Under the pieces are notes generated by a model. It was not told the DNA's origin. It did no database searches and was given only the letters and a program-made list of their open reading frames with translations. A DNA stretch of 64,000 bases from Peromyscus leucopus (Eukaryota > Chordata > Mammalia > Rodentia > Cricetidae). The DNA is taken from assembly GCF_004664715.2 (NCBI RefSeq), contig NC_051074.1, forward strand, positions 19,922,558-19,986,557, written 5' to 3'. A program made the position numbers and the translations under genes. Within the stretch, counting starts at the first letter, position 1. Each line of letters opens with the position of its first letter. Shown here piece by piece: positions 5,436 through 64,000 of this stretch.

Positions 5436-6344
5436 TGTAGTGGTTTGAATAAAAAAGGCCCCCATAAGCTGATAGGGAGGGGCACTATTAGGAGATGTGG
5501 TTATGTTGGAGTAGGTGTGGCTTTGCTGGAGGAAGTGTGTCACTAGGAGGCGGGCTTTGAGGTGAAAAATGCTCAAGCCAGGTCTAGTGTGACTTTCACT
5601 TCCTGCTACCTGCGGATCCAGATGTAGAACTTGTGGTGATATATTGTGTACCCTAATAAACTTATCTGGGGATCAGAAGACAGAGCCAGCCACTAGATTA
5701 GACATAGAGGTCAGACAGTGGTAGCACACACCTTTAATCCTATCACTCGGGAAGCAGAGATCTGTCTGGATCTCTGTGAGTTCAAGGCCACACTGGGAAC
5801 AGAGTCAGGCAGTGGTGGCACACACCTTTAATCTCAGCACTTAAGATCTCATGCCTTTGTTTGGGAAGCACACATACCTTTAATCCCAGGAAGTGACATG
5901 GCTGGGTGGAGAACAGTATATAAGGCATGCAGAGACAGGAACTAAGCAGCAGTTCGACTGAGACCCTCAGGGCTGAGGATTCAGGCTTTCAGTCTGAGGT
6001 TCGTGGAAACAGGATCGGCTGAGGAGTTGGCAAGGAGAGGTTGGCTGTGGGTTCTCCTGTTTCTCTGATCTATCAGCATTCACCCCAATATCTGGCTCCG
6101 TTTTTTTTGTTGTTGTTGTTATTTTTTGTTTTTTTATTAGTAAGACCTTTAACAATTCATGTTATAAGAACGCTCAGCTCTTTCTCCAGCGCCATGTCTG
6201 TCTGTGTGCCACCATGCCACCCACCCTGACAATAATGGGCTAAACCTCTGAAACTGTAAACCAGCCTCAATTAAATGTTTTCCCTTATAAGAGTTGCCGT
6301 GGTCATGGTGCCTCTTCATAGCAACAGAAACCCTAACCAAGACA
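5436..6344 (+). mobile_element. Older LTR-type repeat, split by a later solo LTR
   Basis: Begins TGTAGTGGTTTGAATAA, continues ggcccccataagctgat and ends ccctaaccaagaca, with TG/CA ends. Flanks cctgg and actgg (5 bp, one mismatch) fit an ERVL/MaLR-type 5-bp duplication. A copy of the same family lies in reverse at 18728-19087. I do not assign a family name. Confidence 0.65.
5632..6166 (+). mobile_element. Solo LTR, class II ERV, nested in the older LTR
   Basis: Starts TGTGGTGATATATTG after agaac(t) and ends gttata before agaac(g): a 5-bp exact or 6-bp near-exact target duplication. It carries AATAAA near 5652, two B1-like modules, a TATA-like gtatataagg at 5917-5926 and the U5 phrase tattagtaagaccttt. 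Same family as 11708-12170 and 63636-64000. Confidence 0.85.
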
Positions 6345-11707: not shown

Positions 11708-12170
11708 TGTGTTCCCCAATCTATTATGCACCCTAATAAACTTATCTAGGATCAGAGAACAGAACAGCCACTAGACAAACATAGAGGCCAGAAAATGGTG
11801 GCACACGCACTTTAATCCTAGCATTCAGGAGGCAGAGATCCATCTAGATCTCTGTGAGTTCAAAGCCACACTGGAAACAGTCAGACGTGGTGACTCATGC
11901 CTTTAATCCCAGAAAGTGATGGCAGGAAGCAGAAAGGTATATAAGGCGTGAGGACCAGGAACTAGAGCCTGGTTAAGTTTTTAGGCTTTTGAGCAGCAGT
12001 TCAGCTGAGATCCATTTGGATGAGGATACAGAGGCTTCCAGTCTGAGGAAACAGGATCAGGTGAGGTAGCTGTAGCTTGTTCTGCTTCTCTGATCTTCCA
12101 GCATTCACCCCAATACCCCTGGCTTCAGGTTTGATTTTTATTAATAAGACCTTTTAAGATTCGTGCTACA
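11708..12170 (+). mobile_element. Solo LTR of the same class II ERV family
   Basis: Starts tgtgttccccaatctatt, has ctaataaacttatctaggat, B1-like modules, tatataagg near 11938-11946 and ends ttattaataagacctttt ... gctaca. No clear target duplication was found. Confidence 0.8.
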
Positions 12171-14068: not shown

Positions 14069-14127
14069 GCTGAGTGGGTACTAGAGACAGTAAATAGATT
14101 CTTCAGTGCAGGGCGTTTACCTGTAGA

Positions 14128-14566
14128 TGTAACCAACCGTCTTATTAAATAAGAAACACAGAACCAATGTAAAAGAGAAAGTCAAGAGGTCAGAGCTCAG
14201 AGCTAAAATCTCACCCTTCCTCCTGCGGTGGTCCTAGCTCTCCGAAAGAGAGCTACTTCCTGTGTGTATGTCTTTTCATAGTCTTTTTGTTCTGCTTTGT
14301 CATTGGTTGTAAACCCAAACACGTGACTGCCTCATCACTGCCTGTATGTACAGCCCCCCAGGTCTTAAAGGCGTATGTCTCCAATGCTGGCTGTATCCCT
14401 GAACACACAGAGATCTACCTAGTTCTTCTACCAAGTGCTGGGATTAAAGGTGTGTGCCACCACAGCCACACTCTTGCTATGGCTCTAATAGCTCTGACCC
14501 TCGGGCAACTTTATTTATTAACATACAATCAAAATCACATTTCAGTACAATTAGAATACCACCACA
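14128..14566 (-). mobile_element. Antisense LTR of the family that forms the ERV's 5' LTR
   Basis: Read on the minus strand it starts TGTGGTGGTATTCTAATTG, has aataaataaagttgcccgag, an embedded B1-like 'cacacctttaatcccagcac' module, and ends cttatttaataagacggttg-gttaca. The same U5 end abuts the primer binding site at 62.3 kb. The 5' boundary could instead be at about 14590. Confidence 0.75.
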
Positions 14567-62213: not shown

Positions 62214-62307
62214 AAGTTTTCTTTAGCTCTGAGCTCTGACCTCTTGGCTTTCTCTTTTACATTGTTTCTGTGTTTCTTATTTAATAAGACGGTTGGATAC
62301 ATCAACA
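62214..62307 (+). mobile_element. 3' end of the 5' LTR of the Tgfbr1-carrying ERV
   Basis: The sequence agctctgagctctgacctct ... cttatttaataagacggttgg is the same as the U5 end of the antisense LTR at 14128-14566. It is followed by a two-base spacer and the primer binding site. Only about 95 bp of this LTR is recognisable; its U3 and R parts are missing or too diverged to see. Confidence 0.75.
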
Positions 62308-62309
62308 TC

Positions 62310-62327
62310 TGGCGCCCAACGTTCGTG
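62310..62327 (+). promoter_or_regulatory. Retroviral primer binding site, Lys-type
   Basis: The 18 bases tggcgcccaacgttcgtg begin with TGGCGCCCAAC, the 3' complement of a lysine tRNA as used by class II (beta-type) endogenous retroviruses. The last bases depart from the GTGGGG seen in HERV-K. Confidence 0.8.
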
Positions 62328-62397
62328 TTACGAATTCATGAAAAAGCTGCTTGCCTGTGGCCTTGTGAGCCCCAGCTCAGGCCCAAGCTACACTCAG

Positions 62398-62495
62398 CCG
62401 GTTGTGGTGGTGCACGCCGGTAGAATTTGCTGAAGGAGACAGAGGCAGGAGGATCCCGAGTTTGAGCCGGCCTAGGAGGCTTGGGAGAAGCTTTG
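62398..62495 (+). repeat. Degenerate B1-like segment within the ERV
   Basis: The run ccggttgtggtggtgcacgcc ... agacaggggcag-like ... gagtttgagccggcctagg keeps B1 order (A-box-like start, gaggcaggaggatc, gtttgagcc) but is heavily diverged. It lies between the primer binding site and the Tgfbr1 ATG. Confidence 0.6.
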
Positions 62496-62527
62496 GCCCG
62501 GACTGAACCACAAACAGTTGTGGGACC

Positions 62528-62815
62528 ATGGAAGCAGTGGCTACTGCTCCACATTGCCAGCTCTTTCTCATCATGTTGGTGACTGCAGTGATGCTGCTAC
62601 CTGGGACGAAGGGTTTACTGCTGCTGATTCAGAGAAGAATTGCCAGGACCATCGTGTTACAAGAAAGCATCGGCAAAGGTCAGTTTGGAAAAGTTTGGCA
62701 AGACAAATGGTGGGGAGAAATTATTGTGAAGATTTTCTGTTCTAGGGAAGAATGTTCATGGTTCCGAGAGACAGACATTTATCAGACTGTGATTGCTCCA
62801 AACCACAGAGGAGGC
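62528..62815 (+). pseudogene. Tgfbr1: Tgfbr1 (TGF-beta receptor type 1) mRNA fragment carried inside an ERV
   Basis: The open frame from ATG 62528 reads as three Tgfbr1 pieces joined in frame. The first is a signal-peptide-like start (MEAVATAP ... LLPG), to about 62608. The second is the kinase N-lobe start from [18 protein letters not shown] through [14 protein letters not shown] and [11 protein letters not shown], to about 62792. The third is IAPNHRGG from the activation segment, to 62815, followed by 23 adenines. The extracellular ligand-binding domain, transmembrane segment, GS box, catalytic HRD and DLG motifs and C-lobe are absent. QES and APNHR favour TGFBR1 over ACVR1B (QEI and APNQR). 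No introns are present and one codon is lost before VKIF. It cannot be an active kinase. It sits between a retroviral primer binding site and polypurine tract, so capture or insertion by a retroelement is inferred. Confidence 0.88.
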
Positions 62816-62838
62816 AAAAAAAAAAAAAAAAAAAAAAA
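62816..62838 (+). repeat. 23-base adenine run after the Tgfbr1 fragment
   Basis: An uninterrupted A-run directly following GAGGAGGC. It may be a retained poly(A) tail from L1-mediated retrotransposition or an expansion of the parental ACAAAAAGG. No clear target duplication was seen around the fragment. Confidence 0.85.
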
Positions 62839-63621
62839 GTCTACAGGAAACCATGACCATGCCTAACAGTGACTTTGAAATCTTCAAAAAGATGACAGGA
62901 TCCTACAACGATGATTCCACATGGACTATGATAAAGCCATTAAGCCGATTAACACCATGGAAAAATCGACTTTGGACTACAAACTGGTCAGGACAATTTC
63001 GAGAGGACTAGCTGAGATGATACAGCCTGACAGACTACTCGAACAAGGACTTGAAACAAGCCCTGAACTTTCCTTTTATGCAAAGACTAGACAAATGATA
63101 CAGGACTTGATGATTAACCCCAAAATTTTCTTTTCAAGATTCCCTAAAGATATCTTCACCCCTAGAAAGCAAAAAGAAAAAGAGAATATAGATATGAGAT
63201 AGATCATCGAATCTACTCTGAGAAAAAAGATAAAGAAATAATAGGATAAATAGGTAGATCATTGAATCTACACTGAAGAAAAAGGGGAAGATATAAAAAT
63301 GACAAAAGGTAGATGAATGAATCTATTATGAAAAGAAAAGAGAAAGAATATGGATATGATAAGATAAAAAGGGAGATTATGGAATTTACTTTTAAAAAGG
63401 AACTACTTGTTTTAAATAAGATAAGTAATGAAAATTTTTTGGTCTGAGTTTATCAGATGTTACTGGACTGGACATTGTTAATATATATAATGGAGTTTTT
63501 ATCTGAATCTGTCAAATGTAAATGGACTAGACATCATTAATGTAATTTTTGTCTGTATATATTGTATATACTTATTAGATAGTTTTTCTTGTATTAGTTA
63601 TAAGCTTTTTTAATTTTAGAC
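62839..63621 (+). other. ERV internal tail of unknown origin
   Basis: Starts with gtctacaggaaaccatgacc and contains a 94-codon open frame (62921-63202: MDYDKAIKPINTMEK ... FFSRFPKDIFTPRKQ) that I do not recognise, with no viral motif visible. After it come A-rich lines with a repeated 'tagatcat(c/t)gaatctac' phrase about 60 bp apart (near 63200, 63260 and 63310) and two 'ggactgga/ggactagacat' lines before the polypurine tract. It reads like non-coding retroelement leader or tail. Confidence 0.55.
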
Positions 63622-63635
63622 AAAAAGAGAGGAGA
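63622..63635 (+). promoter_or_regulatory. Polypurine tract of the ERV
   Basis: The sequence aaaaagagaggaga sits immediately before TGTGGGGG, where the 3' LTR starts. This is the usual plus-strand primer position. Confidence 0.8.
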
Positions 63636-64000
63636 TGTGGGGGTATTGTGTCCCCCAAAATATTGTGTATTCTAATAAATTTATCTGGGGTCAGAGAACA
63701 GACAGCCACTAGATACAAAGGCTAGAAAATGGTGGCACTCACACCTTTAATCCTAGCATTCCAGAGATAGAAATCCCTCTGGATCTCTGTGAGTTCAAGG
63801 CCACATTGGAAACAGCCAAGCATGGTGACACGCCTTTAATCCCAGAAAGCCAACCTTTAATCCCAGGGAGTGGTGGTAGAAAGCAGGAAGATATATAAGG
63901 CGTGAGGGCAAGAAACTAGAGGCATTTGGCTAGAAGATTTTGGCTGGTTAAGCATTCAGGCTATGGAGCAACACAGTTCAGCTGAGACCCATTCCAGATG
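63636..64000 (+). mobile_element. 3' LTR of the ERV, cut by the window end
   Basis: Starts TGTGGGGGTATTG after the polypurine tract and matches the solo LTRs at 5632-6166 and 11708-12170: aataaa-tt-atctggggtcag near the start, two B1-like 'cacacctttaatcc' modules, a TATA-like atatataagg at 63891-63900, then 'gttcagctgagaccca'. The U5 end and any target duplication lie beyond 64000. Confidence 0.88.

What the first reader, a model, noticed from the sequence alone, without database searches (positions are those of the whole stretch)
62214..64000. Endogenous retrovirus carrying an in-frame, intronless Tgfbr1 fragment between its primer binding site and polypurine tract
Seen: LTR tail, Lys-type primer binding site, Tgfbr1-like frame from 62528, A-run, tail, polypurine tract and LTR, in one orientation. 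The Tgfbr1 part joins the signal-peptide segment directly to GLxLLxQR, the start of the kinase N-lobe. As I recall the human gene, exon 1 ends at codon 33 and exon 4 starts at codon 192 in a compatible phase, so this join looks like an exon 1-to-exon 4 splice. A second join (after YQTV to IAPNHR) is not at a boundary I know. Host-gene capture by a replication-defective retroelement is the classic route of transducing retroviruses and is rare for a receptor kinase. If the family is multicopy, it has spread a secreted or truncated receptor fragment through the genome.
Basis: partly seen in the sequence, partly recalled or inferred. Interest (0 to 1): 0.85.

Follow-up and report, generated by a model that had tools for sequence, protein, structure and literature searches.

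The report
Retrovirus family carrying spliced Tgfbr1 mRNA
A repeated defective retrovirus in what is very probably the white-footed mouse genome carries a spliced piece of the host's own TGF-beta receptor gene, so it looks like a mammalian case of a virus that picked up a host message and then multiplied.

Summary
Window 62216-64000 (continuing to about 64161) is one copy of a multicopy LTR element: 5' LTR remnant, Lys-type primer site, leader, spliced Tgfbr1 segment, A-run, 3' viral region, polypurine tract, LTR. Of 20 fetched copies (hits chosen for the Tgfbr1 segment), 19 have the leader before it and 19 an LTR after it; 10 have exact 6-bp duplications outside the whole element, the window copy included. 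No duplication hugs the window's Tgfbr1 piece. Against the host gene the first join is an exact exon 1-to-exon 4 splice; the segment starts in the 5' UTR and ends at or within a few bases of the exon 6 end. The second join is an in-frame 114-codon deletion with a 2-nt overlap, at no exon boundary. Proteins without that deletion occur in Peromyscus and Neotoma; 7 of 9 Scotinomys proteins read share it exactly. The capture is thus old. The frame drifts neutrally and lacks the ligand-binding part, so it is probably a passenger. Host mRNA capture by ERVs is known; I found no paper on this case. Copy number, helper and 3' route remain open.

The parts
62216..62221 (+). 6-bp target-site duplication GTTTTC (left copy); right copy lies just outside the window after the 3' LTR
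62222..62307 (+). 5' LTR remnant, last 86 bp of LTR type B (95% identical over 85 bases to a solo LTR at 14121-14565, minus strand)
62310..62321 (+). primer binding site TGGCGCCCAACG (Lys-type, type recalled)
   Evidence: motif found in 17 of 20 copies
62322..62475 (+). untranslated leader; its second half looks like a B1 SINE (resemblance recalled, no library search)
   Evidence: leader matched, in whole or part, in 19 of 20 copies
62476..62527 (+). Tgfbr1 5' UTR, CpG-depleted
   Evidence: alignment to L056; CpG count
62528..62612 (+). Tgfbr1 exon 1 coding part, to the exact exon end
   Evidence: host exon 1 ends GACGGAGG followed by gtgagc
62613..62793 (+). 5' part of Tgfbr1 exon 4, from its exact first base
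   Evidence: host acceptor gtatgtag then GTTTACC
62792..62839 (+). 3' end of Tgfbr1 exon 6, its terminal A-rich end grown into an A-run; overlaps exon 4 by AT at the deletion join
   Evidence: host exon 6 ends GTAGGCACTAAAAG then gtacac
62840..63621 (+). viral 3' internal region; its longest window frame has no Pfam match and no homologue found
62528..62866 (+). 112-codon open frame: signal-peptide part, kinase N-lobe fragment, Lys run
63622..63635 (+). polypurine tract AAAAAGAGAGGAGA
63636..64000 (+). 3' LTR, type A (continues about 161 bp beyond the window end)

Best explanation
This is a non-autonomous endogenous retrovirus family whose internal region was replaced by a spliced host Tgfbr1 message. 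Shown: the element has LTRs, primer site, polypurine tract and 6-bp duplications; the host part here is 5' UTR, exon 1, part of exon 4 and the end of exon 6, joined exon 1 to exon 4 exactly, and ending at or very near the exon 6 donor. Inferred: a provirus lying downstream of exon 6 (for example in intron 6) in sense orientation gave a chimeric RNA in which exon 6 was spliced to a viral 3' splice site and polyadenylated in the viral LTR; exons 2-3 were skipped; the RNA was packaged by a helper, and a template switch near its 5' end added the viral leader and primer site. An internal 114-codon deletion came later, at a 2-nt overlap. The short form then multiplied by using Gag and Pol of a relative, most likely a mysTR-type betaretrovirus-like ERV. 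The Tgfbr1 frame is a passenger.
For: Multicopy. In the 20 fetched copies, which were hits of a query holding the Tgfbr1 and middle pieces, the leader lies before in 19 and an LTR after in 19. Exact 6-bp duplications outside the element in 10 of 20: L010, L013, L015, L023, L024, L027, L028 with two full LTR-A, L025 with a short 5' LTR, and the mixed-LTR copies L009 (the window) and L011. The exon 1-4 join is exact and the 3' end lies at the exon 6 donor within the blur of an A-run. Exons 2-3 lie between in the gene and were found in 0 of 20 element loci. Proteins with the same exon 1-4 join and without the internal deletion: P0047, P0048, P0053 (Peromyscus), P0027, P0044 (Neotoma), P0030 (unnamed). 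A host R reads Q (once H) in 13 of 13 proteins with a residue there, of 15 compared, three of them copies from this genome, consistent with one capture. Private changes in 40 copies are N 47, S 12, stop 1, shared changes N 21, S 10, so no protein-level constraint is seen; neutral fractions are.
Against: No leader, middle, tail or LTR-A match was found in Tgfbr1 intron 6 today. The 3' end sits in a homopolymer of variable length, so its place is uncertain by some bases and a template switch on an A-rich stretch would look alike. No helper or autonomous relative was compared. LTR context of the longer versions and of the Scotinomys and Neotoma copies was not seen. The shared R-to-Q change is a CpG transition (CGG to CAG) and could recur. 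Two of 20 copies have a different LTR type at the 5' end and 5 of 20 no recognised 5' LTR. Two copies with partial LTRs (L014, L020) show no matching duplication.
Confidence: 0.75

Rival explanations
1. An L1-made retrocopy of a short Tgfbr1 transcript inserted into an ERV, and the compound element then multiplied as one unit.
For: There is an A-run at the 3' end of the Tgfbr1 segment, and L1 is the usual maker of intronless copies. P0048, from this genome's contig C9, might be a separate old copy of the long form; its surroundings were not seen.
Against: The segment has no exons 7-9 and no 3' UTR, and ends at the exon 6 donor. In the window copy no direct repeat longer than 5 bp flanks the piece, no better than shuffled sequence (P 0.73), though an old duplication could have decayed; other copies were not tested for this.
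Confidence: 0.15
2. Capture by template switching during reverse transcription in a particle that held a Tgfbr1 mRNA and a viral RNA, with the 3' switch at an A-rich stretch near the exon 6 end rather than by splicing.
For: The join lies in an A-run of variable length, roughly 15 to 30 or more bases; the later internal deletion also used a short overlap. Only 3 of 38 copies keep the C of host GGCAC before the A-run, and 7 of 38 lack the G after it.
Against: The last identifiable host bases are those of the exon 6 end, and 31 of 38 copies have a G after the A-run as in host AAAAG.
Confidence: 0.35
3. The Tgfbr1 frame is kept because its product helps the element, for example by disturbing TGF-beta signalling in the germ line.
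For: 36 of 40 copies start with ATG and stay open for at least 93 codons; 42 rows are predicted Scotinomys proteins. Host-to-window comparison over exon 4 gives pN 0.111 and pS 0.194.
Against: Private changes in copies are N 47, S 12, no excess of silent changes. The 40 copies were the best-scoring hits, which favours intact ones. The product lacks ectodomain, membrane segment and kinase C-lobe, and no Pfam domain was recognised in it.
Confidence: 0.07

Closest known systems
Non-autonomous mysTR-related ERVK subfamilies of the deer mouse (PMC10089650: abstract, section 7 and passages read)
   Same: High-copy defective ERVs in Peromyscus, with internal sequence replaced by what the authors call a nonhomologous sequence.
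   Different: The main text holds no word beginning with 'tgf', 'captur' or 'kinase'; the source of the replaced sequence is not named in section 7. I could not compare sequences, and the supplement was not read.
CrocERV29 with KIT-ligand and CrocERV31 with nectin3 (PMC4299795: section 15 and passages read)
   Same: Host mRNA captured inside an endogenous retrovirus and inherited.
   Different: Passages give nine copies with a whole KIT-ligand frame and six nectin3 insertions, with purifying selection reported; here part of a receptor kinase, a neutral frame and more copies (40 scored).
FAM8A1 transduced by a human endogenous retrovirus (title of Jamain 2001 and one sentence seen in PMC6987440)
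   Same: A mammalian host gene inside an ERV.
   Different: Paper itself not read; copy number and joins not compared.
Maize Bs1 (passage in PMC7264820)
   Same: An LTR retrotransposon that transduced host gene parts.
   Different: A plant element with sequences of different host genes.
Transducing oncogenic retroviruses (RSV Src, named in PMC4299795 section 15)
   Same: Cellular kinase sequence between viral ends.
   Different: Those are exogenous and encode a working kinase; this fragment has only part of the kinase N-lobe.

Membership tests
LTR retroelement / endogenous retrovirus | Two LTRs, primer binding site, polypurine tract, short target duplication | tested here: met
   7 of 20 copies have two full LTR-A and exact 6-bp duplications; primer site in 17 of 20; the window copy has duplications but a truncated, different 5' LTR
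Non-autonomous ERV | No gag, pro or pol in the copies | tested here: inconclusive
   Internal region of the window copy is about 1.3 kb; two window frames (62528-62863, 62921-63199) have no Pfam match; short remnants not ruled out
mysTR-related ERVK subfamily | Sequence similarity to mysTR in the region before the 3' LTR | not tested
   No mysTR sequence was at hand; the paper on mysTR is not held
Host-gene-transducing retrovirus | Processed host transcript inside the proviral ends, moved as one unit | tested here: met
   Exact exon 1-4 join against the host gene, in multicopy LTR-bounded elements
Host-gene-transducing retrovirus | Chimeric RNA packaged and reverse transcribed | not testable with these tools
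   No transcript or particle data
L1 processed pseudogene | 3' end of mRNA with poly(A), target duplications around the copy | tested here: not met
   Ends at exon 6; in the window copy no flanking repeat above 5 bp
Functional TGF-beta receptor decoy | Ligand-binding ectodomain | tested here: not met
   Exon 2-3 protein found in gene locus L057, in 0 of 20 element loci

The most novel reading that the evidence does not exclude
Host-message capture by splicing was the birth event of a dominant class of defective retroviruses in these rodents: the unexplained 'nonhomologous' interiors of high-copy non-autonomous ERVs in Neotominae are host mRNAs, joined at exon ends to a viral 3' splice site, and this Tgfbr1 family is one of the most successful.
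Probability: 0.25. Interest if true: 0.82.

Novelty: new variant of a known kind. Interest (0 to 1): 0.66.

Why it matters
Host-gene capture is the step that makes transducing retroviruses, and PMC4299795 (section 15) calls it relatively uncommon. Here many copies, longer relatives and the intact host gene are all present, so the order of events (exon skipping, capture, internal deletion, spread) can be read and dated. It also suggests a concrete source for the replaced interiors of defective ERVs that are abundant in Peromyscus, and a caution for annotation: some gene models named 'TGF-beta receptor type-1-like' in these species may be parts of this family.

Tried and rejected
Papers: ten searches, of which 5 and 44 asked for Tgfbr1 or a TGF-beta receptor with ERVs; none of the papers listed is on a Tgfbr1-carrying ERV, by title and abstract start. 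The library holds only openly licensed papers and lists were capped. Exon boundaries could not be taken from papers and were read from the gene instead. Viral contig scan with the frame: 5 pattern matches, none confirmed. The 93-codon frame 62921-63199 has no homologue found and no Pfam match. Viral remnants in the fetched Tgfbr1 stretches: none for the middle or tail; a 24-base leader match, short LTR pieces, a longer LTR-B-like stretch in L053 and an antisense LTR-A-like stretch near exon 8. First codon count used a wrong frame and was replaced. One search failed by a script error and was rerun. The protein tree is too short to rank long and short forms and was not used for that.

Full report
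What is there. The window lies in a 2.475-Gb assembly at contig C12. From 62216 on the + strand the sequence shows a 6-bp duplication, an 86-bp LTR remnant, a primer binding site, a leader, Tgfbr1 sequence, an A-run, a 3' region, a polypurine tract and a 3' LTR. The LTR runs to about 64161 and is followed by the same 6 bases, GTTTTC.

The family. A DNA search with 62528-63300 gave 40 scored matches, all covering the whole query at 96-100% identity, out of 3078 first-look candidates. The tool calls such counts lower bounds for repeats; the unscored candidates may include other things. I fetched 20 of the 40 with flanks. They were chosen by a query that holds the Tgfbr1 and middle pieces, so those two are present by construction. 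Not by construction: the tail follows in 20 of 20 (cut short in L021, split in L012), the leader precedes in 19 of 20 (not found in L019; partial in L012, L018, L026) and an LTR follows in 19 of 20 (not in L021). The primer site was found in 17 of 20. At the 5' end, 13 of 20 have LTR-A in whole or part, 2 of 20 (the window copy and L011) LTR-B, and 5 of 20 neither. Seven have two full LTR-A and exact duplications (L010, L013, L015, L023, L024, L027, L028); L025, L009 and L011 have exact duplications with a short or different 5' LTR. L016 has the same six bases two bases further out. L020 and L014 do not match. The other seven were not assessable that way.

Age. Eleven LTR pairs, three of them only parts of LTRs, differ at 0.18% to 5.4% of sites. 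At an assumed rate of 4.5e-9 per site and year (my assumption) this spans about 0.2 to 6 million years, so the family moved until recently.

The host gene. One answered protein search placed Tgfbr1 exons 7 and 8 on contig C2. Stretches upstream held exons 4, 5 and 6, exon 1 in a CpG island and exons 2 and 3. The host exon 1 ends GACGGAGG|gtgagc; exon 4 begins after gtatgtag with GTTTACC. The element reads GACGAAGG|GTTTACT at 62612/62613. This is an exact exon 1-to-exon 4 splice. Host similarity runs on upstream of the ATG into the 5' UTR to about 62476. CpG count over the 5' UTR and exon 1 stretch is 27 in the host and 3 in the element, as expected for a methylated repeat.

The second join and the end. 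The element's exon 4 part stops at GTGAT and continues with ATTGCTCC of exon 6, sharing AT. By the alignment to 1py5 this drops 114 residues (342 nt) in frame and is no exon boundary. The host exon 6 ends GTAGGCACTAAAAG|gtacac. The element's ending was read in 38 of 39 loci examined: GGAGGCA, a long A-run, in 31 of 38 a G, then mostly TC; 3 of 38 keep the C of host GGCAC. So the last host bases are those of the exon 6 end, blurred by the A-run. I read this as an exon 6 end joined to a viral 3' splice site; the A-run leaves room for a template switch there.

Relatives. A protein search with the window frame gave 45 rows: 42 from Scotinomys teguina, two from Neotoma lepida (P0027, P0044) and one unnamed (P0030). 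I read 12 of the 45, nine of them from Scotinomys. All nine have the exon 1-4 join; seven have the same exon 4-to-6 join and two (P0011, P0016) lack a few more residues there. Three (P0008, P0011, P0016) run on into the same viral 3' region (DFEIFKRMTGS against DFEIFKKMTGS). The Neotoma and unnamed proteins have the exon 1-4 join but keep the stretch between the two parts, with gaps of their own. A search with P0027 added P0047 and P0053 of P. californicus and P0048 of P. leucopus, without that deletion; 120 of 1041 matches were listed. P0048 aligns to human TGFBR1 with one single-residue gap from the join to IAPNHRV. Peromyscus, Scotinomys and Neotoma are all Neotominae. The simplest order is capture of exons 1-4-5-6 at or before the base of Neotominae, then the internal deletion before Peromyscus and Scotinomys parted. 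This is inference: no DNA around the other species' copies, or around P0048, was seen.

Function. 36 of 40 copies keep the frame for at least 93 codons, but these are the best-scoring hits. Private changes in them are 47 amino-acid, 12 silent, 1 stop, and shared ones 21 and 10; the neutral expectation is about 65:29:6, so there is no sign that the protein is kept. Host against window over exon 4 gives pN 0.111 and pS 0.194, at most weak constraint on the way. The product would have a signal peptide and part of the kinase N-lobe, without ectodomain, membrane segment or C-lobe. I regard it as a passenger; what the element needs for spread are its LTRs, primer site, leader and polypurine tract (established retroviral biology).

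Known or new. ERVs with captured host mRNAs are known (PMC4299795; FAM8A1 through PMC6987440). The deer mouse study describes high-copy non-autonomous ERVs with replaced interiors (PMC10089650, section 7), but its main text has no word beginning with tgf, captur or kinase. Whether this family is one of their subfamilies was not tested. I therefore call it a new variant of a known kind.

Noticed in passing
window 62222-62307 and L011 about 2317-2746: Proviruses with different LTR types at the two ends (B at 5', A at 3') yet exact 6-bp duplications outside (GTTTTC; TTGGGT). This suggests recombination between two packaged RNAs before integration, and that an LTR-B family was co-packaged.
   Followed up: partly
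window 14121-14565, minus strand: Solo LTR of type B, 445 bp, with GGTAAA on both sides.
   Followed up: partly
window 11708-12170 and 5641-5837: Diverged LTR-A-like stretches (about 79-83% identity) on the + strand, probably old LTR remnants.
   Followed up: no
L022 3034-5060: A copy that starts inside the LTR at position 311 and ends at LTR position 500 followed by a poly(A) run: looks like an L1-made copy of the element's transcript, and would place R at about 311-500. L021 starts at the same LTR position.
   Followed up: partly
L025 2745-4765: A copy with only 143 bp of 5' LTR but an exact AAAAAC duplication, as if plus-strand synthesis had started inside the LTR.
   Followed up: no
L048 1679-2084: LTR-A-like sequence in antisense beside Tgfbr1 exon 8 (about 80-84% identity).
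   Followed up: no
proteins P0047, P0048, P0053: Public gene models named TGF-beta receptor type-1-like in Peromyscus carry the exon 1-4 join and lack exons 2-3; they may be relics of this family rather than receptor genes. Their surroundings were not seen.
   Followed up: partly
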